A stretch of 39,948 bases of DNA from Alicyclobacillus mali NBRC 102425 (GTDB lineage: Bacteria; Bacillota; Bacilli; Alicyclobacillales; Alicyclobacillaceae): assembly GCF_001570745.1 (NCBI RefSeq), contig NZ_BCSG01000024.1:1-39948 (forward strand). Reading direction: 5' to 3'. The notes beneath the pieces were generated by a model that ran no database searches, was not told where the DNA came from, and worked only from the letters and a program-made list of their open reading frames with translations. Of this stretch, positions 14,748-27,346 are shown one piece after another. Position numbers and translations under genes: made by a program. Numbering within the stretch: the stretch's first letter is position 1; every line of letters begins with the position of its first letter.

Positions 14748-15284
14748 TTGGACAACACGGTGTCACTAGATGCCTACATACCCTATATCCAAAGGTTGGC
14801 AAGGCGTCTGATTCGGTATCGAAGAAGCGCGATGATCGATGAACAAGACTTGATTTCTTCGGCAATTACGGCTCTGTGGCAGCGTTCACAAGAGCGCGAG
14901 GTCAATGAGCGATACGCCAAGCAAGTCATTAAATATGCGATGCTGACGGTGTTGCGCAATTCTGCACTCCTAAAGATGCCGAAATCCACCCCCATGGCAC
15001 AAGCCATCCAAGCCTATCAGCGTGCTAGCGACGTTCAAAGCGCTGAGTATGTCGCTGTCGAAGATCCGATGGAACGATGGGAAAATGAAGAACTTGTTCG
15101 CCAGGCGGCCTTGAAAATTTCGGAGTTGCGTCGCGAAGATCAGATCCTACTTTCCTTAATTTTTGTGGAATCCCTGAGCTTCCAAGAAGCTGCAGATGTT
15201 TTGAATCAAACGAAGGCTCAGGTCTACCATCGATATCAGTCTCTCATTCGACAGCTTCAAACCTCGCTTGGCTTGGCGCAGTGA
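14748..15284 (+). CDS. small sigma-70 family factor in the flgM operon
   Basis: A 178-residue RNA polymerase sigma factor. Region 2 is seen at about residues 8-75 (IPYIQRLARRLIRYR, IDEQDLISSAITALWQ, then AMLTVLRNSALL). Region 4 is at about 125-172 (LRREDQILLSLIFVESLSFQEAADVLNQ, then VYHRYQSLIRQL). There is no recognisable region 3, giving an ECF-like architecture. It lies between yvyF and flgM, where Bacillus has no gene; Bacillus SigD is encoded elsewhere and is about 254 residues. TTG start with a weak AGG five bases upstream. The DNA is clearly less GC-rich than comFC. It may direct late flagellar genes or a local regulon; this is inference. Confidence 0.8.
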   Translation: MDNTVSLDAYIPYIQRLARRLIRYRRSAMIDEQDLISSAITALWQRSQEREVNERYAKQVIKYAMLTVLRNSALLKMPKSTPMAQAIQAYQRASDVQSAEYVAVEDPMERWENEELVRQAALKISELRREDQILLSLIFVESLSFQEAADVLNQTKAQVYHRYQSLIRQLQTSLGLAQ

Positions 15285-15358
15285 AGACGGAGGCTCAGGC
15301 GAGCGCAGCGGCGTATGTGCAGAGCATGCTCACCGCGAAAAGAAGGTTTGCATGAAGG

Positions 15359-15393
15359 GCCATTTGTCTGGAACAGACAGATGGCTTCTTTCT
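15359..15393 (+). terminator. terminator after the sigma factor gene
   Basis: A 12-bp stem (15359-15370 with 15374-15385, one G-U pair), loop GAA, followed by TTCTTTCT. It lies 75 bases after the sigma stop and 116 bases before the chosen flgM start, so flgM probably has its own promoter. I could not find a convincing sigma-A or sigma-D promoter between 15394 and 15508. Confidence 0.7.
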
Positions 15394-15508
15394 ATGTTGG
15401 CCGCATGTCACAGCAGAAGGTAAGACAACTTCGCAAAAAATTTTTATGAGCCGCGCGAACGATCGCCGCAAACAGGACGTTGTACAAAGTGAGGAAGGTG
15501 AGGAACGA

Positions 15509-15706
15509 ATGGTTTCTCCATCGGGTGCGTCTGGCCGAATTCCGGAGGACGTAAACACGCAGAGCGTGACCGCACGTGTATCGTCAACGAAGTTTGACCA
15601 TATCCGCGACTTGCAGCAGAAGATTGCGAGCGGCCAATATCAGATCGACGTCGATCGCATCGCGCAAGGCATGATTCAGCGAGGCGTGTTGAACAACAAT
15701 GGATGA
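15509..15706 (+). CDS. flgM: anti-sigma factor FlgM
   Basis: Negative regulator that holds the flagellar sigma factor until the hook-basal body is complete. The conserved FlgM helix is clear at the C-terminus (KFDHIRDLQQKIASGQYQID, then VDRIAQGMI). With the ATG at 15509 (AAGGTGAGG six bases upstream) the protein has 65 residues, short for FlgM (about 88 in Bacillus). An ATG at 15446 would give 86 residues but has no ribosome site. It overlaps flgN by eight bases. Its cognate sigma could be the small factor just upstream or a SigD encoded elsewhere. Confidence 0.85.
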   Translation: MVSPSGASGRIPEDVNTQSVTARVSSTKFDHIRDLQQKIASGQYQIDVDRIAQGMIQRGVLNNNG

Positions 15707-15986
15707 AGTTGAAATTGCCCTCACAAAGCTCGAATTGCTCACAGAGGAAATAGTAGCGTGCCTTCGGAATGCGGATGTGTCCAGTTTATTGGTCTTGATG
15801 TCAAGGCAATGTGCCCTTATGGAGCAATTGGCCAAACAACAGGTGGATTCCGAGCATCATGAGCGGCTCCGTCACATCGCAGATCTCGTAGGGTTGCAGC
15901 AACGGCTGATCGAGCAAGGACTCCATCTCTCGACTGCATTTCTAAATCGGCTTTATCAATACGTTCGCTTCTCAGAGTGGGCGTGA
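15699..15986 (+). CDS. flgN: FlgN-like flagellar export chaperone
   Basis: A 95-residue all-helical cytoplasmic protein, assigned as FlgN (YvyG in Bacillus), the chaperone that delivers FlgK and FlgL to the export gate. It is short, rich in leucine and glutamine with heptad-like spacing (TKLELLTEEIVACLR, LMSRQCALMEQLAKQQ, LVGLQQRLIEQGL), as expected for FlgN. The assignment rests on size, helicity and position between flgM and flgK; primary-sequence conservation is low in this family. The start overlaps the flgM end by eight bases, suggesting coupled translation. Confidence 0.75.
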   Translation: MDEVEIALTKLELLTEEIVACLRNADVSSLLVLMSRQCALMEQLAKQQVDSEHHERLRHIADLVGLQQRLIEQGLHLSTAFLNRLYQYVRFSEWA

Positions 15987-15989
15987 AGG

Positions 15990-17420
15990 ATGGGACAGGG
16001 AATGGGCATACCGACGTTTTCGCCGCTGTACGTGGGTTTATCTGGTTTGCAGGCGATGCAGGAAGCTCAGAGTGTCGTTGGGAACAACATCGACAACGCG
16101 AACACGCCTGGCTATGCTCAGGAATCCGTCAACTTTGTCGAGGCCAATCCCTATCCGCCCATCCCGGGACCCGGTCCGTTTGTTGGGGGGCAGTTCGGGC
16201 AAGGTGTGCTGGTGCAGTCTGTCACTCGCCAAGACGACTGGTTCTACGATGAACAGGATTGGGCGAATCAGAGCACATATCAGATGTACACCACCTTCAG
16301 TACTGTACTAACTCAGGTGGAAGGTATCGTGAATGAGCCCAGTTCTACCAGTTTGCAGAACGCGCTTGATCAATTCTTTTCCGCCTGGCAGACGCTTTCG
16401 ACGGATCCGTCCAACACAGGGGCTAAGCAAGCCGTTATCTCGCAGGGGCAAGTGCTTGCACAGACCTTTAATATGGTGAGTTCCCAGTTGCAGAGCACAC
16501 AGCAGGATGTGTTGAACCAGGTCAACAGCCAGTTTCAACAACTTCAGCAGTATGCTCAGCAGCTATCAGCTATCCAAACTCAGATTCAGAAAATCGCGCA
16601 ACAAAATGTGTCGGGGTCTCCGGTGTCGAATCCAAACACGTTGTTGGACGAGCAGAGCGCGATCATTGGCAAGATGTCGCAACTTGCGAACCTCACGTTG
16701 AGTCAAAATGCGGACGGTACGATTTCGGTGAGTGTCGGCTCGGGACCGCAGGCCATTTCGATGGCGCAGATGGAAACGGGCGCGACGGTCTCTGACTCTG
16801 GTGGACAGTTGCAGCTTACCATCGGGAGTCAGACGGTTCCCTTGTCCTCGGTTGTCCAAGGAGGACAAATTGCTGGGAACGCGCAGGGCTATGGGGAAAT
16901 CTCGGGGCTGCTGAATCAGCTTACGCAGTATGAAGATGTCCTGGCATCGAAGGTCAACGCAGCGCTCGGAAACCAAACCTTTTTTGACGCCCCATCAAGC
17001 GGTGGTTCCTTCGCGGTGGATGCTGGCATGACCGTCGCGACATTGCAGACCGGGCCGAGCGGTGCGTCTGGGGACAACCGATATGCGCTGAACGTCGTCA
17101 ATCTGCAAACGACCCCAACGCCACTTTCCTGGGTCGATGGGACAGGCTCTACGCAGACCGAATCAGGCACATTCGACCAATTGCTCGGCAGTATGGTTTC
17201 CCAACTCGGGACGCTTGCAGCGGGTGTAAGTCAGAACGCCACGACCGCGAACGCTCTGCTGCAACAATCCACGCAACTTCGTCAATCGGTGTCGAGTGTC
17301 TCGATTGACGAGCAGGCGACGTACATGATCGCATTTCAAAACGCCTACTCGGCGGCGGCGAAATACATTGCGACCTTTCAAACCATGTTAAACAGTCTCA
17401 TGAACATGGTCCAGTCATGA
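15990..17420 (+). CDS. flgK: flagellar hook-associated protein 1
   Basis: Forms the first hook-filament junction ring outside the cell. The N-terminal rod motif NNIDNANTPGYAQ (about residues 32-44) and the C-terminal helical segment SSVSIDEQATYMIAFQNAY to the end are diagnostic. Length 476 is in range. Composition is extreme: by my count only five lysines and three arginines in the whole protein, with abundant Gln, Ser, Thr and Asn. ATG at 15990 is listed; an in-frame ATG at 16002 (MGIPTFSP) lies 11 bases after AAGGA and is equally possible. Confidence 0.94.
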   Translation: MGQGMGIPTFSPLYVGLSGLQAMQEAQSVVGNNIDNANTPGYAQESVNFVEANPYPPIPGPGPFVGGQFGQGVLVQSVTRQDDWFYDEQDWANQSTYQMYTTFSTVLTQVEGIVNEPSSTSLQNALDQFFSAWQTLSTDPSNTGAKQAVISQGQVLAQTFNMVSSQLQSTQQDVLNQVNSQFQQLQQYAQQLSAIQTQIQKIAQQNVSGSPVSNPNTLLDEQSAIIGKMSQLANLTLSQNADGTISVSVGSGPQAISMAQMETGATVSDSGGQLQLTIGSQTVPLSSVVQGGQIAGNAQGYGEISGLLNQLTQYEDVLASKVNAALGNQTFFDAPSSGGSFAVDAGMTVATLQTGPSGASGDNRYALNVVNLQTTPTPLSWVDGTGSTQTESGTFDQLLGSMVSQLGTLAAGVSQNATTANALLQQSTQLRQSVSSVSIDEQATYMIAFQNAYSAAAKYIATFQTMLNSLMNMVQS

Positions 17421-17440
17421 CCCGTGTGGGGTGAACTGCG

Positions 17441-18409
17441 GTGCGCGTCACCACATCCATGGAACAGGCTCAGTTTCTCTTTAACCTCGAAAACATCAAC
17501 ACCGCAATGCAGAAGGTTCAGCAGCAACTCTCGACCGGAAAAACGCTGAACTTGCCGCAGGATGATCCGGTTGCGGTCTCTCAGGATATGAGCTTGACCG
17601 CGGAAGTATCCCAGGTTCAAGCGGGGCTGTCGACGGTCTCTTCGGCCTTATCTTGGATGAACGCAACGCAATCGGCTATGCAAGGCATGGTGTCGCAACT
17701 CCAGCAAATTCAGTCAAACCTGGAAGGTGTGTTGAATGGGCCCAATCAGAGTTCTGGGGATTTATCCGGCTATTCGGCAACCGTGTCTCAGCTTGTGCAA
17801 GGCATTTATCAAATTGCCGATGAAACGGTGGGCAATCGGTATCTCTTTGGAGGGCAGGCGGACGACACAGCGCCGACGACGTACCTTTTGAGTCCTGGAA
17901 CTTCTCTTCCGAACGGAGCGGGTCCGAGCGCTTCCGCAGGAACGAATTACAATCCGTTCGATGATGCACAGGCGAGTCCACCGAACGTAAACGAGCAGAT
18001 CGCTCCCGGGATACAAATTCGGACGACCGTCACAGCGTATGACATCTTTCTCACGACACCTCAAGGAGGAACGCGTAATCTTCGTGATACGCTCTCGGCG
18101 ATTCAGTCCGACCTTCAGTCAGGAAATACAGGAGCCTTACGTCAAGATTTAAGTGACTTACAGGCGAATTTGAATCAAGTGATCAGCTTGAACGCTGCGC
18201 TCGGTTCGCGCATTCAGCGAATGACGGCGGCTCAAAATCAGATGACCCAATTTCAGACGAATCTCACGAACTTGAAGGGGGGGATTGAAGGAGCAGATAT
18301 GGCGCAGGTCATGACGCAGTTCTCAACGGATCAGGTGATCTACGAAGCTGCGCTGCAAATGGGCGCCCAAATCTTGCTCCCATCACTCATCAACTATCTA
18401 CCTTCATGA
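17441..18409 (+). CDS. flgL: flagellar hook-associated protein 3
   Basis: Second junction protein, between FlgK and the filament. The 322-residue product has the flagellin-like N-terminal domain (QQQLSTGKTLNLPQDDPVAVSQDM, compare flagellin LSSGxRI...DDPAG) and the C-terminal coiled region (ADMAQVMTQFSTDQVIYEAALQ) typical of FlgL. Charge is low: about three lysines and eight arginines. The GTG start has a modest GGGGTGA eight bases upstream and follows flgK by 20 bases, so the two are one operon. Confidence 0.93.
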   Translation: MRVTTSMEQAQFLFNLENINTAMQKVQQQLSTGKTLNLPQDDPVAVSQDMSLTAEVSQVQAGLSTVSSALSWMNATQSAMQGMVSQLQQIQSNLEGVLNGPNQSSGDLSGYSATVSQLVQGIYQIADETVGNRYLFGGQADDTAPTTYLLSPGTSLPNGAGPSASAGTNYNPFDDAQASPPNVNEQIAPGIQIRTTVTAYDIFLTTPQGGTRNLRDTLSAIQSDLQSGNTGALRQDLSDLQANLNQVISLNAALGSRIQRMTAAQNQMTQFQTNLTNLKGGIEGADMAQVMTQFSTDQVIYEAALQMGAQILLPSLINYLPS

Positions 18410-18432
18410 CTTTTGTGGTTTATAAAAAAGAA

Positions 18433-18448
18433 GCGCGCCAAAGCGCGC
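18433..18448. other. GC hairpin in the hag leader
   Basis: GCGCGC, loop CAAA, GCGCGC, in the 83-base interval between flgL and hag. On the plus strand no T-run follows. On the minus strand the hairpin is followed by TTCTTTTTTATAA, a perfect terminator layout, so it could stop antisense transcription entering flgL, or fold in the hag 5' leader and stabilise that mRNA. No sigma-D consensus (TAAA ... GCCGATAA) is seen upstream of hag. Confidence 0.5.
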
Positions 18449-18492
18449 GGCCATCCGTCCCAACAGAAAACACTGAGAAGGAGGCAATACTC

Positions 18493-19350
18493 ATGTCCCT
18501 GAACTTTAGTGTAAACAACAATGCGTCCGCCGCAAGCATTCTGTCCAATCTCCAGTATGTCAATAATCAAATCAACACGTCCTATCAACAACTTTCCACA
18601 GGTAATCGCATCAACAGCGCAGCGGATGATCCGGCGGGCTACGCCATTTCTCAACAAATGACGTCTCAGGTGAACGCCCTAAACCAAGCCATTCAGAACG
18701 CGCAGAACGGTATCAGCATGTTGCAAACCGCTTCTGGCGCCATGAACCAAATTACTTCTATCCTTCAGACGATGAACACGCTCGCGGTTGAGGCGGCGAA
18801 CGGTACTGAGAATTCTACAGATCTGCAGAACTTGGACCAGGAATTTGTGGCGCTGCAGAAACAGATCAACAATATCGCCTCACAGACCAAGTTCAATACC
18901 ATGACCCTGCTCGACGGTTCGTTTGCATCAACGGGTATCATCTTCCAAATCAATACCGACTCGACGAGTAACTCGGAGCTGTCGGTTACGATTGCGGACG
19001 TCCAAATTTCGTCCTTGTTTACTGGCGTTTCGCTTGGCTCTGATGGCTATCTTCACATCACATCCCAAGCGGCGGCGACTGCAGCCATTTCCGTGGTTCA
19101 GGCAGCGATTACGTCGTTGTCCGCCTACCAGGCCAACATTGGCGCGGTACAAGACCAGCTGAATTACACGGTTTCGAACCTGCAAAATACGGCCAACAAT
19201 CTTCAGAACGCCGACTCAACCATCACCAACACTGACATGGCGCAAGCTTATACGCAATTCAGCCAGGAGCAGGTGTTGCAGCAGGTTGGCCTGGCAATGC
19301 TCTCTCAGGCCGATCAGCAGCCAGACGCAATCCTGAAGCTGCTCCAATAA
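18493..19350 (+). CDS. hag: flagellin
   Basis: The filament subunit, 285 residues. The N-terminal D0/D1 region shows QQLSTGNRINSAADDPAGYAIS and the C-terminal D1/D0 region shows ADSTITNTDMAQAYTQFS, ending ILKLLQ. The variable middle is short. By my count it has only three lysines and one arginine and about 22 charged residues in all, where mesophilic flagellins carry many basic residues in the conserved ends. The ATG at 18493 has AAGGAGG eight bases upstream, by far the strongest site in the flagellar cluster, consistent with high expression. Confidence 0.96.
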   Translation: MSLNFSVNNNASAASILSNLQYVNNQINTSYQQLSTGNRINSAADDPAGYAISQQMTSQVNALNQAIQNAQNGISMLQTASGAMNQITSILQTMNTLAVEAANGTENSTDLQNLDQEFVALQKQINNIASQTKFNTMTLLDGSFASTGIIFQINTDSTSNSELSVTIADVQISSLFTGVSLGSDGYLHITSQAAATAAISVVQAAITSLSAYQANIGAVQDQLNYTVSNLQNTANNLQNADSTITNTDMAQAYTQFSQEQVLQQVGLAMLSQADQQPDAILKLLQ

Positions 19351-19372
19351 GATAGGCCCGAAGTGTGTTCAT

Positions 19373-19404
19373 GCGATCCCGGCTTGACTTAAAGTCGGGA
19401 TCGC
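19373..19404 (+). other. hairpin between hag and fliD
   Basis: GCGATCCC pairs with GGGATCGC, with an inner GACTT/AAGTC stem. It lies 23 bases after the hag stop and 18 before fliD. There is no T-run, so it is more likely a partial terminator or a 3' stabiliser that lets hag be expressed above fliD than a full terminator. Confidence 0.55.
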
Positions 19405-19422
19405 GGACGAGGGGGTGGGCGT

Positions 19423-21015
19423 ATGAGTATGAATATTTCATCGAGTAATTCCAGCAATCTGCAAACAGCAGCAAGTTTACTGCAGCAGTTGAACACCATT
19501 TCAAATCCAGCAGGCACGGGTTTGCCTGTGTCACAGTATGTACAGGATTTGCAAGAGATTTTGCAACAAGAGCTGGAGGCACCCATTCAGAATCAGATAT
19601 CCACGCTTCAGTCGCAGCAAAATGCATACAGCGCTTTGCAATCAGCGTTGCAGACGTTTCAACAAGCTACCGAGACGCTTGCGAGTTTGCAGAGCTGGAG
19701 TACGACATCCGCCTCGTCCACGAATTCAAGCGTGGCCACCGTATCCGTTTCTCCAGGGGCGAATGTGGGGACTTACAACATTCAGGTTAGCCAATTGGCG
19801 CAGGCAGAAATGCAAGTGCAGACCGCAAATATGCAAACATCCGCTACTGGGACATCCTCACTGGCTGCGGGCACTTTGTCCATTCAGCCCACCCACCTAA
19901 ACAACGGACAGGCTGTGCAAATTTCCATTTCGTCTGGTGAGTCCCTTCAGGACATTGCGAACGCTGTGAATCAGTATACACAGCAGACGGGCGTTGCGGC
20001 GTCCGTGGTGTCCAACGGGCAGGGGGGATATTTTCTAGCGCTTTCATCCATTCAAACAGGATCTAATTATGGATTTCAGGTGACGGACACCGTGGGTGGT
20101 GGCTCAGGGGGACAATTTGGCTTTCAAGTCCTCTCCAATGCCCAGGATGCGGAGATTGTGCTAGGCTCTCCGTCCGGGACATCATCTTCCGGCTCGTCTG
20201 GAACCACGGTCACGTTGACTTCATCGACAAATACCTTTCAAAACATGATTCCCGGCTTGACCATCAATGCGATTTCGACGGGGTCCACCACGCTCTCGGT
20301 TGTTGAGAATACAAGCGGAGCCAAGAGCGCCGTGACGACGTGGATGAACGCGTACAATACACTCGTGGATACACTCCGACAAGATACTGAATATACCGCG
20401 CCATCGTCTGGAGCAACAAATGGGAGCAGCCCCACCGTCGGCCCGCTGTTCGGAGATCCGCTCGCTCAGAGCATGGTGTCCGAATTGGCGTCACAAGCCA
20501 TGCAAACTGTCAGTGCAGTCAATAGCCAAATGAATTCGCTCGCCTCGATTGGAATTGTGTTGGATCCCAGCAATGGCCACCTGGAGTTTCAATCGCCGAG
20601 TGGGTTTTCGAGTGCGGTCGGGACTTTGCCCGACGGGCAGCAAATGTTTGACCAAGCGCTGACGAACAACTTGTCGGATGTGGAGCAACTTTTCGGCGTG
20701 GTCAATACGACGGCCTCGCAAGCCATACCGACTTCGGGCGTTTTAGGGAATCTGTATAACTATATTAACGTGTTGTTGGAGGGAAACCCAAATGGCACGG
20801 GTCAGTCTCCTATCTCAACGGCTGTACAGTCCCTGTCCCAACAACAGTCGACGTTGCAAAACTATTTGAACACGGTACAGCAACAAATTCAGCAGCGGGT
20901 TCAGCAATACGAAGCTCAGCTCAACCAACTGAACGAGGTCATGGCGCAGATGCAGGCACAAATGCAACAGTTATCCGCGATGTTCGGACAGAGCTCGAAT
21001 AAGCCGACTGGGTGA
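19423..21015 (+). CDS. fliD: flagellar filament cap protein
   Basis: Cap at the filament tip that folds incoming flagellin. The 530-residue protein has helical ends: QYVQDLQEILQQELEAPIQNQ near residue 38, and a long Gln-rich coiled coil from about 460 to 520. In between lie FliD-type domains, including LNNGQAVQISISSGESLQDI and SGAKSAVTTWMNAYNTLVDTL. Only two lysines and two arginines were counted in the whole protein. ATG start with a GGGGGTGGG site. Transcribed with hag or from a site close by. Confidence 0.93.
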   Translation: MSMNISSSNSSNLQTAASLLQQLNTISNPAGTGLPVSQYVQDLQEILQQELEAPIQNQISTLQSQQNAYSALQSALQTFQQATETLASLQSWSTTSASSTNSSVATVSVSPGANVGTYNIQVSQLAQAEMQVQTANMQTSATGTSSLAAGTLSIQPTHLNNGQAVQISISSGESLQDIANAVNQYTQQTGVAASVVSNGQGGYFLALSSIQTGSNYGFQVTDTVGGGSGGQFGFQVLSNAQDAEIVLGSPSGTSSSGSSGTTVTLTSSTNTFQNMIPGLTINAISTGSTTLSVVENTSGAKSAVTTWMNAYNTLVDTLRQDTEYTAPSSGATNGSSPTVGPLFGDPLAQSMVSELASQAMQTVSAVNSQMNSLASIGIVLDPSNGHLEFQSPSGFSSAVGTLPDGQQMFDQALTNNLSDVEQLFGVVNTTASQAIPTSGVLGNLYNYINVLLEGNPNGTGQSPISTAVQSLSQQQSTLQNYLNTVQQQIQQRVQQYEAQLNQLNEVMAQMQAQMQQLSAMFGQSSNKPTG

Positions 21016-21026
21016 GGAGGGCATCC

Positions 21027-21374
21027 ATGACGCCGGGTGTATCTCCGTCTCTTTACGATCTGGGGAATCGTGTACTCGCAGCCCTACGAGCGGGCGAGTT
21101 CGAATTGGCGAACGAGCTCGCGCGACAGTGGAGAGATGCCATAAACGCAGGCGCCCCGCCCAGTTGGGATGACGGCCGCCGACTTCTCCTCCAAACAGCC
21201 GCTATTTCGGCATGTATCGCGGAGGAGCAGAATCGGGTTCGAGCTCAACTCGGGGCATTGCGGCAGGCTGCACTCGTGTCGCTGGCGTACGTCACCCACA
21301 TGTCAACCGAGACCTCGAGGAGAAAGGACGTTGCGTGCGATGCGGTTGTCCGCCTGTATGATTGTCAAAGATGA
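21027..21374 (+). CDS. FliT-like small helical protein (possible flagellar chaperone)
   Basis: A 115-residue, all-helical, arginine-rich cytoplasmic protein directly after fliD, where Bacillus has fliS and fliT. Its pattern (LYDLGNRVLAALRAGEFELA, then an IAEEQNRVRAQLGAL helix) recalls FliT, the FliD chaperone, not FliS, whose N-terminal motifs are absent. The assignment rests on position and shape. The ATG at 21027 has GGTGAGGAGGG about seven bases upstream. Its 3' end overlaps the next gene by 35 bases in another frame. Confidence 0.6.
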   Translation: MTPGVSPSLYDLGNRVLAALRAGEFELANELARQWRDAINAGAPPSWDDGRRLLLQTAAISACIAEEQNRVRAQLGALRQAALVSLAYVTHMSTETSRRKDVACDAVVRLYDCQR

Positions 21375-23604
21375 GGCTCATGTCATTAAGCGATGCCTCG
21401 AATCTCTCCGCGATGTGGCAGACGAAGTCGTGATTGTGGACACGGGATCGACGGACGCAACGCGTGAGATAGCGGAGTCCTTTGGCGCCAAGGTCTACGA
21501 GTTCGTGTGGACTGGTGACTTCAGTGCGGCGCGAAACATGGCGCTTGAACACGCTTGTGGCGATTACGTCCTTGTCATAGACGCGGATGAATTTCTGCCG
21601 AAGGACGACGGGCTCCGTTTGCGTCAAGCGGTGGAGCGCGGCGAAGCGGATGCATTCACGGTGGATATTATCAACTATCTTGGCTCGGTACGACGTTTTA
21701 TTCGTTCTCCTGGCGTACGTGTCGTCAGAGTGTTTCGTCGAGGTTTTCGCTATCGTGGAATTATCCATGAGCAAATCTTGCATGACCTCGTCGAAGCAGG
21801 AGCACACATTGAGATGCTCGATGTGGAGCTGCATCATCTCGGCTATTTAGAGGAATTCATCAAATTAAAAAACAAGTCAGAGCGCAACATCCAGCTCCTC
21901 GAAAAGGAACTTGCTGATCATCCGGAAGACCTGTTTCATGTGACGAACCTAATGGCTGAATACGGAAGACTGGGGAGAAACAATGATATCGTTCGTATAG
22001 GCGAGCCGATGGTTGAGAAGGTGCGGCCGGAGCATTTTGCGCGGCAATCCCATCTCATTCTCCGCCTTTACAGAATGCTCATGACCGCATACGGTGAGCT
22101 GGGGGAAATGAACAAGCTGCAGGAATTTGGTACGCGAGCCATGCGGATTTTTCCGAATGCCGCGGACCTCCCTTATACCTTGGGTGTATATGCTCTCAAG
22201 CATCGGCGGTTGCGTCAGGCGCGTGCCGCTTTTGAACAGGCGCTGGAGATCGGAGAGCCTAAGGTGCATCTTGTGGATTCCATTCCTGGCTCGGGATCGT
22301 ACGCGGCTCATGCGAAGCTCGGGGAATTGTGGGTATATCTGGGTGATCTCATTGCGGCTAGGCGTCATTTCTTTCAAAGTTTGCGTGCCTATCCCCGACA
22401 GGAGCGATTGTACGCGTTTGTTGCGGGCGTCGTGCCGATTCGTGAACGGGGTGTTTATACGCAGCTCAAGGAGATGGCCAGGCATGATCCACTCTGCTTG
22501 ACGTTTGCAACTTGGGCCGGCGTGTTATGGGGAGTGCCAGACGCATTCGACGACGTAGCCAGTTTGCCCGCGATGCCCGAGACGGCAGCGCTTGTTGCAA
22601 AACTGAGAGCAGCCGTGGCTCTGCGGCAGTCCGTCGATGCGAGTGCCTTTGCAGGCGACTCGCTTGGGCTTCGCGAATACAAGTGGCTTCAGTTTCTCGC
22701 ATCGCTGGATGAGAAGATGGATATTCGAGAACTGGATCTCCAGGAAGATGCGAGATACCAGGCGCTTCGCCCTTGGTTACTGAATGAACAAATTCCCAAG
22801 AAACTGGCGCCTCTTTTCGATGATCTTCTGCTTGCTTCGGCATACCGTACCCTTTATAGCTGGATGCCCAAAGCCGTGGATCGCGACGACTGGTTTGTGC
22901 ATGCCGTGTGCTCTCCCTTGGCAGAAGGCATGAGCTGCGTCGAGTGGAAGGGAGAACTGCCTTGGGAGATAGAACTGCGGGCCATGTGTGCTTTTTCGAA
23001 GAGGAGCTTTGAGCGAAGTGCCGTGGAATTGGAGCGAGCGCTCGACTTTGAGCCAACGGTTCGCAAGATTATCATTGAAACCGACTTGGCTCTTGTGTAT
23101 CAGAATGTGCAGCACGCTCAGACCATTGTTCGGCAGGCCCTTATCGCATTCCCTTCGTCGGAACTTCTTCATGCTGTGGCAGCCAAGCTGCAAGTCAGGA
23201 GCCGCCACGTGCGGTCTTTGGACGAACTGTTGGAAGGTGATCTGGAAGTGAACCCGCATCGGGCGTACCAAGGATCGGTCAAAGCCATGCCGCTCAAGGC
23301 GAAAATCGTGAAGCTCCATGAGCGGGCCTGTGAATGCGTTGACGAGATCCGTAGGCTTGTGGAATCCGAAGATATTATGGGCGCTCGCCGCTACATCGAG
23401 TACGTTCAGGATATCACGGCGTTCTTGCGAAGCAACCTTGACCTCACCTATGAGGCAGCCAAGGCAGCCGATGCATCTTACGCATATTACTACCGTATGC
23501 TTGTGGATTGGTATCTCCAACCTGCGAAGGTGAAGGAACAGTACGAAGAAATGCGAACGTTTTGGGCTTCCTGGGCGCAAACATGGGAAAAAGTGGAGGC
23601 GTGA
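21340..23604 (+). CDS. family 2 glycosyltransferase with TPR-like repeats (candidate flagellin glycosyltransferase)
   Basis: A 754-residue cytoplasmic enzyme. The N-terminal GT-A domain (about 1-230) starts LSACMIVKDEAHVIKRCLES, with VDTGSTDAT and the metal-binding DAD at residues 81-83 (VIDADEF), then a FRYRGIIHEQI segment typical of GT2-TPR proteins. TPR-like helical repeats follow from about 230 to 400, and the long helical remainder is not recognised. GT2-TPR enzymes modify proteins or peptides (SunS of sublancin is one). Position after fliD suggests O-glycosylation of flagellin. ATG at 21340 is chosen; AAAGGA lies 11 bases upstream, inside the preceding ORF. Confidence 0.8.
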   Translation: MRLSACMIVKDEAHVIKRCLESLRDVADEVVIVDTGSTDATREIAESFGAKVYEFVWTGDFSAARNMALEHACGDYVLVIDADEFLPKDDGLRLRQAVERGEADAFTVDIINYLGSVRRFIRSPGVRVVRVFRRGFRYRGIIHEQILHDLVEAGAHIEMLDVELHHLGYLEEFIKLKNKSERNIQLLEKELADHPEDLFHVTNLMAEYGRLGRNNDIVRIGEPMVEKVRPEHFARQSHLILRLYRMLMTAYGELGEMNKLQEFGTRAMRIFPNAADLPYTLGVYALKHRRLRQARAAFEQALEIGEPKVHLVDSIPGSGSYAAHAKLGELWVYLGDLIAARRHFFQSLRAYPRQERLYAFVAGVVPIRERGVYTQLKEMARHDPLCLTFATWAGVLWGVPDAFDDVASLPAMPETAALVAKLRAAVALRQSVDASAFAGDSLGLREYKWLQFLASLDEKMDIRELDLQEDARYQALRPWLLNEQIPKKLAPLFDDLLLASAYRTLYSWMPKAVDRDDWFVHAVCSPLAEGMSCVEWKGELPWEIELRAMCAFSKRSFERSAVELERALDFEPTVRKIIIETDLALVYQNVQHAQTIVRQALIAFPSSELLHAVAAKLQVRSRHVRSLDELLEGDLEVNPHRAYQGSVKAMPLKAKIVKLHERACECVDEIRRLVESEDIMGARRYIEYVQDITAFLRSNLDLTYEAAKAADASYAYYYRMLVDWYLQPAKVKEQYEEMRTFWASWAQTWEKVEA

Positions 23605-23619
23605 TCGAGCGATCACGCC
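23598..23619. terminator. bidirectional hairpin containing both convergent stop codons
   Basis: GGCGTGATC, loop GAGC, GATCACGCC: a perfect nine-bp stem. The plus-strand stop (TGA 23602-23604) and the minus-strand stop (23613-23615) both lie inside the arms. On the plus strand TTTC follows; on the minus strand a T-rich stretch follows about seven bases on. Confidence 0.7.
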
Positions 23620-24497
23620 TTTCGTGCGATAATGGCTATCTCTGTCTGAATGTTAAACTGGGGTCCGGTCTCTTCAAGGTTGGCTTGGTCCATAAGCTTT
23701 TGAAATTGGACCTCATCCACGATTCCCGACTCGATCAGCTGCTTCCGTTTGGCTTGCCACTGTGCCAGTAACACATGCTTAGTGCGCTTGTCTGGCGTGG
23801 ACTGATAGCGTGAAGTCGGCAGCACAAGCGTTTGCACAACGTCCATCCCCGCTTGATCAACCCAAGACGCCAGCTTGCGACCTACGGTGCGGTCGCCGCC
23901 CTGTGTAAATTGAAGTTCGATGAGCTTCGTCTTGACAGTTGACAAGGCTGGGGGATCTGGCGGATACGCAAGGGAGAGACCATCGTCCACGTCGATGAGA
24001 CACAAGATTCCTCCCGTTCGAAGATTGCGGGCCGCTTGAAGAACCGCTTTCTCTGGTTCTCGCAGGTGTTGCAACACAAATCTCGCGCAAATCACGTCCA
24101 TGGGGTACGGCAACTCGAAGGTCGTCACGTCGGCTACGGTAAACTCAAGCACACTAGAGGGGTGTAACGCACCCGCTTGTCTGGCTAGAGCTTCGAAAGA
24201 GCGACATGCGTGTATAGCTTCGTGATTTCTATCCAATCCCCAAATGTGTACAGGATAAAGGCTGGCTAAATCGAATACGAGCGCGCCATAACCGCAGCCT
24301 AAGTCGGCGACGTATCCGCCGTCTGTCAAGGGAAGGGTAGACAGTAGTGCCCGGCGTGTCGCGGACGTGTACACCGTTTGGAGGAGAAGCCACCGCTCTT
24401 GCGTAGGCACCTTCAATAGGAAGTTCTGCCACGTATGATCGAGTTTTTGAAGTCGCTTATACGCGGGAAGAGTTGTTCCGTACTCTGGTCCACTCAT
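23613..24497 (-). CDS. class I SAM-dependent methyltransferase
   Basis: A 294-residue cytoplasmic methyltransferase. The SAM-binding motif I is VADLGCGYGALVFDLA (about residue 65), followed by acidic LDRNHEAI, then motif ICARFVLQHLREPEKAVLQAARNLRTGGILCLID. The substrate is unknown; its place beside glycosyltransferase genes hints at sugar or flagellar modification, but a metabolite target is possible. The ATG at 24497 has GGGAG eight bases upstream; the longer frame runs into the hpf promoter region. It converges on the GT2-TPR gene with eight bases between. Confidence 0.82.
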   Translation of the reverse strand: MSGPEYGTTLPAYKRLQKLDHTWQNFLLKVPTQERWLLLQTVYTSATRRALLSTLPLTDGGYVADLGCGYGALVFDLASLYPVHIWGLDRNHEAIHACRSFEALARQAGALHPSSVLEFTVADVTTFELPYPMDVICARFVLQHLREPEKAVLQAARNLRTGGILCLIDVDDGLSLAYPPDPPALSTVKTKLIELQFTQGGDRTVGRKLASWVDQAGMDVVQTLVLPTSRYQSTPDKRTKHVLLAQWQAKRKQLIESGIVDEVQFQKLMDQANLEETGPQFNIQTEIAIIARKA

Positions 24498-24572
24498 CTT
24501 GACACTCCCTTTGCTAAACTTGGAACAACGAAAACGATGCGCTGCACCATTTTGTTTTTGTGGAGTTCGCTC

Positions 24573-24578
24573 TATAAT
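24573..24578 (+). promoter_or_regulatory. -10 element of the hpf promoter
   Basis: A perfect TATAAT 29 bases before the hpf ATG. The -35 is weak: TTTTGT with a 17-base spacer, or TTGTTT with 15. Confidence 0.55.
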
Positions 24579-24606
24579 GGGGGCACCCCAAAAGGAGGCG
24601 TTGCCC

Positions 24607-25176
24607 ATGAAGGTTCAAGTTCACGGCGACAACATTGCTGTCACGTCGGCATTGCACCAGTACGTCGACAAACGGATCAGTCGCTTGGCGCGATTCTTCG
24701 AGGGCGAGAACGACAAGCATGTGTACGTCACGATGGCTGTCGAAGGAACGGACCACCGTGTCGAAATGACGGTATATGCCTATGGTGTGATTTTTAGAGT
24801 AGAAGAAAAATCCCCCGATATGTATGCCTCCATAGACCTCGCAGCAGATCGACTTGAAGAGCAAATCCATCGTTATAAAGACAAGATAACAGTTTCCCGA
24901 AGGCAGCGGTCTCGGACCGGACGGGAGAGTGACGCTTTGTATCAACAAAGGGTCGTCCTAGCCAACACAGACGCACTTGACGTCAGTGATGAATTTCGAG
25001 TGGTTCGAGTCAAGCGGTTCGCGATGAAGCCGATGACCGTGCAAGAAGCCATTTTGCAAATGAATTTACTTGACCATGACTTCTTCGTGTTCACCAACGC
25101 CGACACGGACGAAATGAACGTGGTTTACAGAAGAAAAAACGGCGACTACGGGCTAATTGAACCCGACGGCATATGA
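24607..25176 (+). CDS. hpf: ribosome hibernation promoting factor, long form
   Basis: A 189-residue long-type HPF (YvyD), which dimerises 70S ribosomes into inactive 100S particles in stationary phase or stress. The N-terminal S30AE domain (MKVQVHGDNIAVTSALHQYV to about residue 100) is joined by a short linker to the C-terminal dimerisation domain (VVRVKRFAMKPMTVQEAILQMNLLDHDFF ending GLIEPD). AAAGGAGG lies eight bases before the ATG. Bacillus has hpf between the fliT end of the flagellar cluster and secA, so its position is conserved although three glycan-related genes now flank it. Confidence 0.95.
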   Translation: MKVQVHGDNIAVTSALHQYVDKRISRLARFFEGENDKHVYVTMAVEGTDHRVEMTVYAYGVIFRVEEKSPDMYASIDLAADRLEEQIHRYKDKITVSRRQRSRTGRESDALYQQRVVLANTDALDVSDEFRVVRVKRFAMKPMTVQEAILQMNLLDHDFFVFTNADTDEMNVVYRRKNGDYGLIEPDGI

Positions 25177-25204
25177 GCAAGCCGATTAAGGGGTGAAGCA
25201 TTGT

Positions 25205-25248
25205 AGACGTCACTGAGCCCGTCTGCAGGTCGGACGGGCTCAACGTCT
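25205..25248. terminator. large hairpin between hpf and glf
   Basis: GAGCCCGTC (25215-25223) pairs with GACGGGCTC (25233-25241); an outer AGACGT (25205-25210) pairs with ACGTCT (25243-25248). It lies between convergent hpf and glf and has no T-run, so termination is likely but not classical. Confidence 0.6.
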
Positions 25249-25276
25249 CCTGGAGCGCTCTGACGAACTGTAAGCG

Positions 25277-26371
25277 TCATCGGCCGAGCACAGTATCTAC
25301 AAAGTGGAGAGCCTGTGCTACCACTTGATCCATATTGTAGTATTGATACGTCCCGAGGCGTCCAAGAAAATGCACACGTTCCTCCTTGCGAGCAAGCGTC
25401 TGATACTGAAGGTAGAGTCGTTGGCTTTCGTCACATGGCACGGGATAATACGGATCTCCGTCTGACTGTGGAAACTCGTACATGAGCACGGTTTTTGAAT
25501 GGAATTGTCCAGTTAAATGCTTCATTTCCGTAACACGCGTGAAGTCGTATTCGTTTGGCCAGTTGATGGTCGCCACTGGCTGCACAAACTCACTGTCGTG
25601 ATACGCGAGCTGAAAAGACAGCGATCGGTACGGGAGCTTGCCGAACCGAAAATCATAGTATTCGTCGACGGGGCCGGTCCACACCAATGTATCGTAGTCA
25701 ATGCTGCCCCTCAACTCACGAAAGTCTGTCCCAAGCAGAATGTGAATGTTGGGGTGGCTCAACATGCGCTCCACCATCTTTGTGTATCCCTGCGAAGGGA
25801 TACCTTGATAGCGATCTGTGAAATACCGGTCATCTCGATTCATTCGAATCGCAATTCGGCCACAAACCGAGGGTGCGAGATCTTCTGGATTAAGCCCCCA
25901 CTGTTTTTTTGTGTAGTTTTTAAAAATTTTCTCGTATACACGGGCGCCCATTCGACTCATAACGACGTCTCGAGAATTCTCGACGCGAGGCACAGCCATG
26001 ATGTCCTGCTGGATGAGAGACTGTAGACGCGGCTCGTCCACACTTACATGGTAGAGAGCAGCAATGGTGTCCAGGTTGACTGGCAAGGGCACAAGCTGGC
26101 CGTCCACCATCGCTCGAACTCTATGCTGATAAATGCGCCACGACGTAAATTGACTCAGATAGTGAAAGACGCGCTCGCTGTTGGTGTGAAAGATATGTGG
26201 ACCGTATCGGTGAATGAGAAGCCCGTGCTCGTCGTATTCGTCGTAGGCGTTGCCGGCAATGTGGCGGCGTCGCTCTACGACGAGGACACTCATGCCCAGT
26301 TGTCGCGCGGCCCGTTCTGCCACTGTAGCACCGCATAGACCAGCACCCACAACGATGAGATCGAATCGCAA
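25277..26371 (-). CDS. glf: UDP-galactopyranose mutase
   Basis: Flavoenzyme converting UDP-galactopyranose to UDP-galactofuranose, the donor for Galf-containing glycans. The 364-residue length is typical. The FAD-binding motif VVGAGLCGATVAER is at residue 7, the VERRRHIAGNAYDE block near 31, and YGPHIFHTNSE near 56. A conserved arginine-containing region (YQGIPSQGYTKMVERML) and the C-terminal FLGRLGTYQYYNMDQV are also typical. TTG start with GGAGGGG six bases upstream. It lies 78 bases after the GT2 gene on the same strand, probably in one operon. Confidence 0.94.
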   Translation of the reverse strand: MRFDLIVVGAGLCGATVAERAARQLGMSVLVVERRRHIAGNAYDEYDEHGLLIHRYGPHIFHTNSERVFHYLSQFTSWRIYQHRVRAMVDGQLVPLPVNLDTIAALYHVSVDEPRLQSLIQQDIMAVPRVENSRDVVMSRMGARVYEKIFKNYTKKQWGLNPEDLAPSVCGRIAIRMNRDDRYFTDRYQGIPSQGYTKMVERMLSHPNIHILLGTDFRELRGSIDYDTLVWTGPVDEYYDFRFGKLPYRSLSFQLAYHDSEFVQPVATINWPNEYDFTRVTEMKHLTGQFHSKTVLMYEFPQSDGDPYYPVPCDESQRLYLQYQTLARKEERVHFLGRLGTYQYYNMDQVVAQALHFVDTVLGR

Positions 26372-26449
26372 CTGAAACCCCTCCGGAACCGGGATGGTTT
26401 TTCAAGGGAACAATGTGTAACTGATACAGTCGTGACGAGCGCGCACACG

Positions 26450-27346
26450 TCATATGAAGATTTGATGTTCAATTAGGAACATCGCGATTTGCCGATTCGA
26501 AAGCGACGAGCGCGCCAAATGACTGAACAGGCGCTCCCGAGTGGCGTCGCGCACCTGACGTGCAATCATTTGCTCTTCCGAGGACATCAAATGTGCATAT
26601 TCGCTCAGAATAATCTCGGTCGCTCGGCATTGATCGATCAAACTTGCGAGAGGGTCCTTTTGGGAGTTACCTGCGTTATGGATTCGATAATAGCCAAGGG
26701 CTTCAGACACGAACACGCACTTGGCGCCATGAAGCAAAAAGGATACGTGTCGAAGCCAATCGTGTGAAATGCGCAAGCGTCTATCTTCAATACCACAGTC
26801 AAGAAAAAGCGAGCGACGGTAAATGGCGCGCGGACTGATGTGCACGCCTTGGAGGATCATCTTTCGAAGGAGATCCGGGTTGCTTGGAAACGTGTGATCT
26901 TCTCCTCCAAATATGAAGCGAAAGGAGGGATGTCGTGGTTGCCCGTATAATCGAGTCTGCCGAGGTACGTCTCCTTCCAAGGCGAAAAGATCAGAGAAGC
27001 CGATGTCCGCTCCGTTCATCTCCATCGCTTCAATGACCCGAGAGCTGTACTGCGGCATGAGAACGTCGTCTGCGTCGAGGAAAGTGAGGTATTCGCCATT
27101 CGCGTGTAAAAGGCCAAAATTGTATGTATAGTTGGCGCCTCGATTGACGCCGTTCCGAAATAAGTGCACACCTCGATCGCGGTAATTTTCGACAATCTGC
27201 GCGGTTTGGTCGGATGAACCGTCGTCGACAACCAAGATTTCCTTGGGCTCGTAGGTTTGACGCACGGCGGATTCCAAGGTTTCGCGTATCCACCGTTCCG
27301 CGTTGTATGCAGGAATGACGACAGACAAGAGCCTGTTTCCGTTCAA
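26450..27346 (-). CDS. family 2 glycosyltransferase
   Basis: A 298-residue cytoplasmic GT-A enzyme. The N-terminus reads LLSVVIPAYNAERWI, with VVDDGSSDQT near residue 40 and the metal-binding DADD (LTFLDADDVL) near 91. A later SHDWLRHVSF segment is the probable catalytic-base region of this group. No membrane helices. TTG start with GGAGTG upstream. Transcribed with glf, which suggests that it may use UDP-Galf or build a glycan that contains Galf; acceptor and donor are not established. Confidence 0.86.
   Translation of the reverse strand: MNGNRLLSVVIPAYNAERWIRETLESAVRQTYEPKEILVVDDGSSDQTAQIVENYRDRGVHLFRNGVNRGANYTYNFGLLHANGEYLTFLDADDVLMPQYSSRVIEAMEMNGADIGFSDLFALEGDVPRQTRLYGQPRHPSFRFIFGGEDHTFPSNPDLLRKMILQGVHISPRAIYRRSLFLDCGIEDRRLRISHDWLRHVSFLLHGAKCVFVSEALGYYRIHNAGNSQKDPLASLIDQCRATEIILSEYAHLMSSEEQMIARQVRDATRERLFSHLARSSLSNRQIAMFLIEHQIFI

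What the first reader, a model, noticed from the sequence alone, without database searches (positions are those of the whole stretch)
15990..21015. Extracellular flagellar proteins nearly devoid of lysine and arginine
By counting in the translations: Hag (285 residues) has three K and one R; FliD (530) has two K and two R; FlgK (476) has five K and three R; FlgL (322) has three K and eight R. Total charged residues in Hag are about 22 and in FliD about 30. The cytoplasmic neighbours (FlgN, FliT-like protein, glycosyltransferase) have normal charge, so this is not a codon-composition effect. Conserved basic positions of the flagellin ends (for example those near KMR in mesophilic flagellins) are replaced by Gln, Thr or Ala. 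This fits adaptation of the filament to an acidic exterior and raises the question of how axial assembly, which uses salt bridges in mesophiles, is achieved.
Basis: partly seen in the sequence, partly recalled or inferred. Interest (0 to 1): 0.75.

Follow-up and report, generated by a model that had tools for sequence, protein, structure and literature searches.

The report
Flagella nearly free of positive charges
In this Alicyclobacillus-type bacterium the parts of the swimming flagellum that stick out of the cell have lost almost all lysine and arginine, probably so that the filament does not become strongly positively charged and fall apart in acid.

Summary
In detail: Hag has 3 K + 1 R in 285 residues, FliD 2 + 2 in 530, FlgK 5 + 3 in 476, FlgL 3 + 8 in 322, while cytoplasmic neighbours hold 9.5-14% K+R. 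None of 47 FliDs from other Bacilli (median 11.4%) is as low, nor any Hag, FlgK or FlgL compared. All 45 complete FliDs from its order have 0-3.5%; one of 515 residues has no K or R. The hook proteins share the trait, the rod less so; binding-protein lipoproteins of this genome have 5.3-8.1%.

K/R appears actively excluded: differences between relatives yield K/R at 0.04-0.31 of the codon expectation, against 0.77-1.08 for a cytoplasmic neighbour. Calculated charge at pH 3 is +0.9 to +2.9 per 100 residues, against +9 to +11 in other Bacilli.

Best explanation: exclusion of residues that stay charged in acid, so that the filament is near neutral outside. Similar depletion recurs in other acidophiles, but also in some bacteria not known to me as acidophiles. 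It is an extreme, organelle-wide form of a known acidophile trait.

The parts
15446..15706 (+). FlgM anti-sigma factor; cytoplasmic control, K+R 14.0%
   Evidence: Pfam PF04316 31.6 bits; composition
15699..15986 (+). FlgN-like export chaperone (named by position; no Pfam match); cytoplasmic control, K+R 9.5%
   Evidence: position before flgK; homologues in 20 other loci, some of them duplicates of one genome
15990..17420 (+). FlgK hook-filament junction protein, 476 aa, K5 R3 (1.7%)
   Evidence: Pfam FlgK_D1, Flg_bb_rod; counts
17441..18409 (+). FlgL hook-filament junction protein, 322 aa, K3 R8 (3.4%)
   Evidence: Pfam Flagellin_N/C, place downstream of flgK; counts
18476..18484 (+). Shine-Dalgarno-like AGAAGGAGG before hag
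   Evidence: sequence read
18493..19350 (+). Hag flagellin, 285 aa, K3 R1 (1.4%), calculated charge -14 at pH 7, +4 at pH 3
   Evidence: Pfam Flagellin_N/C; counts; charge; model matches filament structures
19423..21015 (+). FliD filament cap, 530 aa, K2 R2 (0.75%)
   Evidence: Pfam FliD_N, FliD_C; counts
21012..21374 (+). FliT-like small protein (by position; no Pfam match); cytoplasmic control, K+R 13.3%
21340..23604 (+). GT2 glycosyltransferase - TPR - FliS fusion, 754 aa; cytoplasmic control, K+R 12.9%
   Evidence: Pfam PF00535 residues 4-126, PF02561 FliS residues 644-752; TPR match below its cut-off

Best explanation
The exposed axial proteins of the flagellum (hook FlgD/FlgE, junction FlgK/FlgL, filament Hag, cap FliD) have been selected to contain almost no residue that carries a positive charge in acid. 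At the external pH of such organisms (about 3-4 for A. acidocaldarius) carboxylates are largely protonated, so lysine, arginine and histidine would dominate the charge. A normal filament would carry about +9 to +11 per 100 residues at pH 3 and its packed subunits would repel each other. Replacing K/R with Gln, Thr, Ser, Asn and other uncharged residues keeps each subunit near zero charge outside. Assembly then rests on apolar packing and uncharged or carboxyl hydrogen bonds. Shown here: the depletion, its restriction to exported proteins among those examined, its spread through the order, codon-level exclusion of K/R, and retained fold in models.
For: Composition of the four proteins and their cytoplasmic neighbours. 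Order against other Bacilli, K+R medians: Hag 1.4 vs 8.9, FlgL 3.1 vs 10.4, FlgK 2.0 vs 8.9, FliD 1.5 vs 11.4%, while other long ORFs at the same loci are 12.2 (41 loci) vs 11.3% (44 loci). Histidine is low too, 0.2 vs 0.4-1.0%. Calculated charge per 100 residues at pH 3: own Hag +1.4, FliD +0.9, FlgK +1.2, FlgL +2.9; other Bacilli without the four low genomes +9.9, +11.0, +9.1, +10.8. Conserved basic columns kept by this genome: Hag 1 of 21, FlgL 6 of 22, FlgK 5 of 23, FliD 0 of 30. K/R gains at 0.04-0.31 of expectation in 9 relatives (0 against 4.4 expected in a tenth, near-identical one), against 0.77-1.08 for GT-FliS in the same ten genomes. Gradient by exposure: rod FlgB 5.2, FlgC 3.5, two FlgF/G-type proteins 4.2 and 5.3%; hook FlgD 0.6, FlgE 1.4-1.7%; cytoplasmic FliG 12.4, FlhA 10.1%. 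FliDs below 4% form 10 groups in a 190-row tree. Precedent: Lactobacillus agilis filaments needed 10-fold more HCl than Salmonella's to come apart (passages of PMC4802830).
Against: Trinickia terrae (FliD 1.5%), Caballeronia humi (3.5%) and two Novosphingobium (3.6, 3.9%) are low without being known to me as acidophiles. Most 'other Bacilli' are unnamed, so their neutral habitat is assumed; four of the 47 (G136, G063, G082, K. tusciae) are themselves low in FliD. For Hag, FlgL and FlgK the order's upper range (7.8, 8.1, 5.7%) overlaps that of other Bacilli. Acididesulfobacillus hag and fliD are 72% and 56% identical to an Alicyclobacillaceae pair, so those two genes are not independent cases. 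Acidic residues also fall about 2-fold, which low pH alone does not demand, and Liquorilactobacillus sicerae lowers K/R (FliD 3.1%) but not D/E (17.1%). A. acidocaldarius DSM 446 is described as non-motile. No filament was measured.
Confidence: 0.8

Rival explanations
1. Base composition or codon bias of the genome removes K/R.
For: The window is GC-rich (60% GC), which disfavours lysine codons.
Against: GC-rich DNA favours arginine, yet R is about as rare as K. Neighbours are normal. Random codon changes in these genes would give 12-14.5% K/R.
Confidence: 0.01
2. It is only the general charge poverty of all exported proteins of acidophiles; nothing is special about the flagellum.
For: 16 binding-protein lipoproteins with a recognisable lipobox (of 19 loci fetched from 22 matches) have 5.3-8.1% K+R (median 6.8), below cytoplasmic values. 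The A. acidocaldarius amylase has 6.4% K+R+H (review PMC6172347, passages).
Against: The exposed axial proteins are about 2- to 11-fold lower than that median (0.6-3.4%), and the rod is less affected. A common cause with a stronger effect on a polymer is likely, so this is partly true.
Confidence: 0.12
3. A charge-poor cassette was inherited or spread by gene transfer and persists without selection by acid.
For: hag-fliD of Acididesulfobacillus groups with Alicyclobacillaceae. The trait runs through a whole order.
Against: Hundreds of differences between relatives avoid K/R. FlgK and FlgL of Acididesulfobacillus are low (3.3, 4.8%) though not closely related to the order's. Several separate low groups exist.
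Confidence: 0.05
4. K/R loss serves something else: resistance to trypsin-like proteases, escape from flagellum-binding phages or surface recognition, or export through the type III gate under the reversed membrane potential of acidophiles.
For: Fewer K/R does mean fewer trypsin sites. The low FliDs of Trinickia and Caballeronia show that low K/R may arise outside extreme acid.
Against: Histidine and D/E are lowered too and conserved positions along the whole proteins are affected. An inside-positive potential would, if anything, favour exporting positive residues (established reasoning, not tested). FliK, also a type III substrate (established knowledge) but not part of the exposed polymer, keeps 8.4%.
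Confidence: 0.07

Closest known systems
Charge-poor extracellular enzymes of acidophiles (alpha-amylase of Alicyclobacillus acidocaldarius, Matzke et al. 1997, as summarised in PMC6172347)
   Same: Extracellular, K/R/H reduced against neutrophile relatives, polar residues increased; same reasoning about positive repulsion in acid (passages).
   Different: Amylase 6.4% K+R+H and 10.5% D+E; here 0.75-3.4% K+R in the four window proteins, across a multi-protein organelle, reaching zero in one FliD of a relative.
Bacillus subtilis / Salmonella-type flagellar filament
   Same: Same Pfam domains and fold; best structure matches of the Hag model are flagellin filaments, TM about 0.8. E115 of the B. 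subtilis 5-start contact is kept as E117 in 40 of 41 other order members.
Acid-stable filaments of Lactobacillus agilis (PMC4802830)
   Same: Filament from an acid producer that resists acid better than Salmonella's (passages).
   Different: Its K/R content was not examined here. The lactobacillus L. sicerae is K/R-poor but D/E-rich.
Positively charged acid-stable maltose-binding protein of A. acidocaldarius (Schafer et al. 2004, via PMC6172347)
   Same: Extracytoplasmic protein of the same genus.
   Different: Opposite solution: basic surface (passages). So low K/R is not the only route in this genus.

Membership tests
Bacterial flagellin / flagellar axial proteins | Flagellin N and C helical domains, FliD_N/FliD_C, FlgK_D1 | tested here: met
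   Pfam above cut-off for all four proteins
Bacterial flagellin / flagellar axial proteins | Flagellin / cap fold | tested here: met
   Hag model pLDDT 72, top Foldseek hits are flagellin filaments, TM about 0.8; the zero-K/R FliD of G035 pLDDT 79, top hits FliD caps, TM 0.60 for the first. Shallow alignments (14 and 15 rows); D0 ends poorly modelled.
Bacterial flagellin / flagellar axial proteins | Assembles into a working filament | not testable with these tools
   needs electron microscopy and a motility assay
Charge-poor acidophile exoproteins | K+R lower than in homologues from other Bacilli | tested here: met
   0 of 47 FliD, 0 of 22 Hag, 0 of 17 FlgK, 0 of 18 FlgL are lower
Charge-poor acidophile exoproteins | Effect limited to exported proteins | tested here: met
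   window neighbours 9.5-14%, FliG 12.4, FlhA 10.1%, other long ORFs at order loci median 12.2% K+R; the whole genome was not surveyed
Charge-poor acidophile exoproteins | Host lives at low pH | tested here: inconclusive
   close named relatives are Alicyclobacillus, and A. acidocaldarius grows at pH 3-4; this strain itself is unnamed
Charge-poor acidophile exoproteins | Stable and functional in acid | not testable with these tools
   needs purified filaments
pH-gated carboxyl-pair polymer (as in tobacco mosaic virus coat; recalled) | Two carboxylates facing each other across a subunit interface | tested here: inconclusive
   by homology E117 (S0) faces D221 (S+5); Asp at 221 in 30 of 174 aligned rows (duplicates included), all from the order, a close Bacillota MAG or Acididesulfobacillus, but only about half of the order has it

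The most novel reading that the evidence does not exclude
The K/R-free axial proteins form a pH-gated polymer. In the near-neutral cytoplasm each subunit is strongly negative (Hag -14, FliD -22 at pH 7, calculated) and cannot assemble. On export into acid the carboxylates are protonated, net charge passes through zero near pH 3.5, and subunits lock together, helped by a carboxyl pair E117-D221 across the 5-start interface where B. subtilis has a Glu-Asn hydrogen bond. The filament would then need acid to exist and would fall apart at neutral pH, the mirror image of ordinary flagella.
Probability: 0.2. Interest if true: 0.75.

Novelty: new variant of a known kind. Interest (0 to 1): 0.56.

Why it matters
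Ordinary flagella fall apart in weak acid (Salmonella filaments at 0.5 mM HCl, passages of PMC4802830), yet flagellated acidophiles exist. A filament built with almost no Lys/Arg suggests that polymer assembly, capping and the hook joint do not need most of the conserved basic residues, and gives a natural series (0 to 14.6% K+R in FliD) for testing which contacts hold a flagellum together. It also has a practical side: tryptic proteomics will hardly see these proteins, so 'no flagellin detected' in such organisms means little. My full-text searches (most listings were capped at 12-20 of up to 198 papers) listed no paper on K/R depletion of acidophile flagella; the library lacks most subscription journals.

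Tried and rejected
GC or codon bias: rejected. Alkaliphile parallel: I recalled that some alkaliphile flagellins are poor in basic residues; the one named alkaliphile here, Halolactibacillus alkaliphilus, is normal (Hag 11.4%, FliD 12.6%), and the 15 papers listed of 118 showed none on it. Acididesulfobacillus as an independent case: dropped for hag and fliD after finding 72% and 56% identity to Alicyclobacillaceae. A required E117-D221 pair: weakened, because about half of the order has Asn at 221, including some of the most K/R-poor flagellins. Counting inter-subunit salt bridges in a filament model: not possible, no filament coordinates in reach. Naming the strain: not achieved.
Full report
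What was checked. The numbers agree with the finding: Hag (18493-19350) 3 K and 1 R in 285 residues, FliD (19423-21015) 2 and 2 in 530, FlgK (15990-17420) 5 and 3 in 476, FlgL (17441-18409) 3 and 8 in 322. Pfam recognises all four. The Hag start used is supported by a Shine-Dalgarno-like AGAAGGAGG before ATG 18493 and by relatives that start at the same place. The cytoplasmic neighbours FlgM, the FlgN-like and FliT-like proteins and the glycosyltransferase-FliS fusion hold 9.5-14% K+R.

Where it comes from. The window is contig 24 of a 2.79 Mb genome. The nearest named flagellins are those of Alicyclobacillus hesperidum, A. tengchongensis and A. montanus, 71-80% identical.

How unusual it is. 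FliD places were searched in 37 genomes of the family (34 with a match), 51 of the order (46 with a match) and 200 of the class (145 with a match). I fetched regions for the order members with a FliD and for 47 other Bacilli genomes from 32 families, one to three per family (one further stretch, L216, gave no flagellar protein). Proteins were assigned with profile HMMs built from the window proteins; partial ones were left out of the counts, among them the FliD of G032 (2.3%), so numbers differ by protein. Medians of K+R, with ranges, order against other Bacilli: Hag 1.4 (0.7-7.8, n=42) vs 8.9 (4.0-12.4, n=22); FlgL 3.1 (1.4-8.1, n=43) vs 10.4 (3.9-13.4, n=18); FlgK 2.0 (1.2-5.7, n=42) vs 8.9 (3.7-10.5, n=17); FliD 1.5 (0.0-3.5, n=45) vs 11.4% (1.9-14.6, n=47). 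The ranges of Hag, FlgL and FlgK thus overlap. FliD separates the groups except for four other Bacilli: G136 1.9, G063 3.5, G082 3.9 and Kyrpidia tusciae 4.9%; the remaining 43 lie at 7.6-14.6%. Other long ORFs at the same loci have medians of 12.2% (41 loci) and 11.3% (44 loci); this control takes the longest non-overlapping ORFs and is not curated. Acidic residues fall too, by about half, and histidine is 0.2 against 0.4-1.0%. One order member, G035, has a 515-residue FliD with no lysine and no arginine. Among the first flagellin of each of the 80 named loci, only the three Alicyclobacillus and the related MAG L047 are below 3%; Trinickia terrae (3.3%) is next.

Scope along the organelle. 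In this genome the rod proteins FlgB, FlgC and two FlgF/FlgG-type proteins have 3.5-5.3% K+R, the hook cap FlgD 0.6% and the hook FlgE 1.4-1.7% (the range reflects the start chosen), while cytoplasmic FliG and FlhA have 12.4 and 10.1% and FliK 8.4%. A search for FlgD in 61 genomes matched 48; 30 loci were fetched. In the 26 from other Bacilli FlgD ranges 3.8-14.2% and FlgE 5.3-9.2%, some FlgE being cut by the end of the locus; the four order members have FlgD 0.6-2.9% and FlgE 1.4-4.3%. Lipoproteins on the outside of the membrane are milder: 16 of 19 binding-protein loci had a recognisable lipobox and show 5.3-8.1% K+R, median 6.8. So the depletion is strongest in the exposed polymer.

Which residues went. 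I took columns basic in at least 60% of the other Bacilli (four low genomes left out; 19 Hag, 15 FlgL, 14 FlgK, 43 FliD). This genome keeps K/R at 1 of 21 in Hag, 6 of 22 in FlgL, 5 of 23 in FlgK and 0 of 30 in FliD, two of the 30 being gaps here. In Hag the replacements are mostly Gln, Thr, Ser and Asn; in FliD also Ala, Ile, Phe and others. A few basic positions survive across the order, such as FlgK R80 in 42 of 42, so exclusion is strong but not absolute.

Selection. The codons of these genes are close to K/R codons: 12-14.5% of random nonsynonymous changes would give K or R. Between this genome and nine relatives the observed share is 0.04-0.31 of that expectation; a tenth, nearly identical relative shows 0 against 4.4 expected. 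The same test on the cytoplasmic GT-FliS protein gives 0.77-1.08 in those ten genomes and 0.69-1.41 over all 44 comparisons listed, some of them duplicate genomes or partial hits. Of the 12 listed FliD pairs from other Bacilli, 11 give 0.45-0.89 and the twelfth, of the low-K/R genomes G082 and G136, gives 0.09. The model is simple (single changes, transition weight 2), but the contrast is large.

Link to acid. Calculated with model pKa values, charge per 100 residues at pH 3 is +1.4 for Hag, +0.9 for FliD, +1.2 for FlgK and +2.9 for FlgL here, against medians of +9.9, +11.0, +9.1 and +10.8 in other Bacilli without the four low genomes; at pH 7 Hag and FliD are at -4.9 and -4.1. Organisms of known pH fit: A. 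acidocaldarius (pH 3-4; passages of PMC6172347) FliD 1.8%; K. tusciae (pH optimum 4.2-4.8, flagella seen; passages of PMC3236038) 4.9%; Acididesulfobacillus acetoxydans (optimum 5.0, motile; passages of PMC8982180) FliD 2.2%, FlgK 3.3%, FlgL 4.8%. In the order of Acididesulfobacillus 39 of 41 genomes had a FliD; of 42 FliDs measured 7 lie at 1.3-3.8% and 35 at 4.9-12.2%. One of the low ones (2.4%) has a contig length I recall for Desulfosporosinus acidiphilus (pH 3.6-5.5), and it forms a clade with two unnamed relatives at 2.6 and 3.8%. Among Lactobacillaceae 11 of 151 genomes had a FliD; Liquorilactobacillus sicerae (from cider, recalled) is lowest at 3.1%, the other 13 FliDs have 4.5-11.9%, and its D/E is not reduced (17.1%). 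On a FastTree of 190 FliD rows, some of them duplicates, the 61 below 4% form 10 groups after midpoint rooting; shared composition may pull low sequences together and branch support was not used, so this count is rough.

Results against. Trinickia terrae, Caballeronia humi, Novosphingobium nitrogenifigens and N. umbonatum have FliD at 1.5-3.9% and are not known to me as acidophiles. The hag-fliD pair of Acididesulfobacillus is closest to Alicyclobacillaceae among the sequences held (72% and 56% identity) and is probably transferred. A. acidocaldarius DSM 446 is reported non-motile (passages of PMC3035248). The habitat of nearly all G genomes is unknown to me.

How the filament may hold together. 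In B. subtilis E115 bonds to N240 of the S+5 subunit, mostly conserved between species (passages of PMC5643327). E115 is kept as E117 in 40 of 41 order members other than the window; the N240 site is Asp in this genome and in 21 of those 41, Asn in 20. Over 174 aligned flagellin rows, duplicates included, Asp occurs there in 30, all from the order, the related MAG L047 or Acididesulfobacillus; three other Bacilli have Glu. A Glu-Asp pair would be stable only when protonated, which invites the pH-gated reading; but half of the order lacks it. AlphaFold models keep the fold: Hag pLDDT 72 with flagellin filaments as best matches, the zero-K/R FliD pLDDT 79 with FliD caps as best matches. In Salmonella FliD, single changes to serine at the cap-flagellin interface were largely tolerated while arginines impaired motility (passages of PMC12221982), which suits an interface without charges.

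Prior knowledge. Charge-poor extracellular proteins of acidophiles are known, with the A. acidocaldarius amylase as the example (6.4% K+R+H; passages of PMC6172347), and the electrostatic reasoning is stated there. A maltose-binding protein of the same species took the opposite route. Acid-stable filaments are reported for Lactobacillus agilis (passages of PMC4802830). My searches, read as capped listings, showed nothing on the K/R content of acidophile flagella.

Verdict. A real, strong, order-wide and apparently selected feature that extends a known acidophile trait to a whole polymeric organelle and carries it to near or complete absence of K/R. The mechanism is well founded physically but untested.

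Noticed in passing
window 21340-23604 (+): One protein fuses a GT2 glycosyltransferase, a TPR-like region and the flagellin chaperone FliS, which suggests that flagellin is glycosylated while held by its chaperone. Of 10 relatives scanned, 6 carry the FliS domain and 4 do not. The modular FlmG of Caulobacter is a possible parallel (seen in a search listing only).
   Followed up: partly
L125 (G002, A. acidocaldarius DSM 446) flgK-hag region: The genome paper (PMC3035248, passages) calls flgN, fliJ and fliT missing and the strain therefore non-motile; a homologue of the window's FlgN-like protein is present at E 9e-33, and its axial genes exclude K/R as if in use. The statement may rest on missed annotation.
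   Followed up: partly
L050 (Acididesulfobacillus acetoxydans), L146, L157, L140: hag and fliD of an acidophilic sulfate reducer are 72% and 56% identical to an Alicyclobacillaceae pair while flgK and flgL are not: likely transfer of a filament cassette between acidophiles.
   Followed up: partly
L155:3844-5388 (-), genome G035: A FliD of 515 residues with no lysine and no arginine at all, hence no trypsin site.
   Followed up: yes
L245/L117 (Trinickia terrae), L252/L090 (Caballeronia humi): FliD K+R of 1.5 and 3.5% and D+E of 3.4 and 4.0%: charge-poor caps outside known acidophiles.
   Followed up: no
L217-L234, own genome: Mature binding-protein lipoproteins are lysine-rich but arginine-poor (for example K22 R6), unlike the arginine-rich cytoplasmic proteins of this GC-rich window.
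   Followed up: no
window 14748-27346: Third-position GC is about 0.53-0.64 in the ORFs of this stretch, filament cluster included, against 0.73-0.90 in most of the listed ORFs further out.
   Followed up: no
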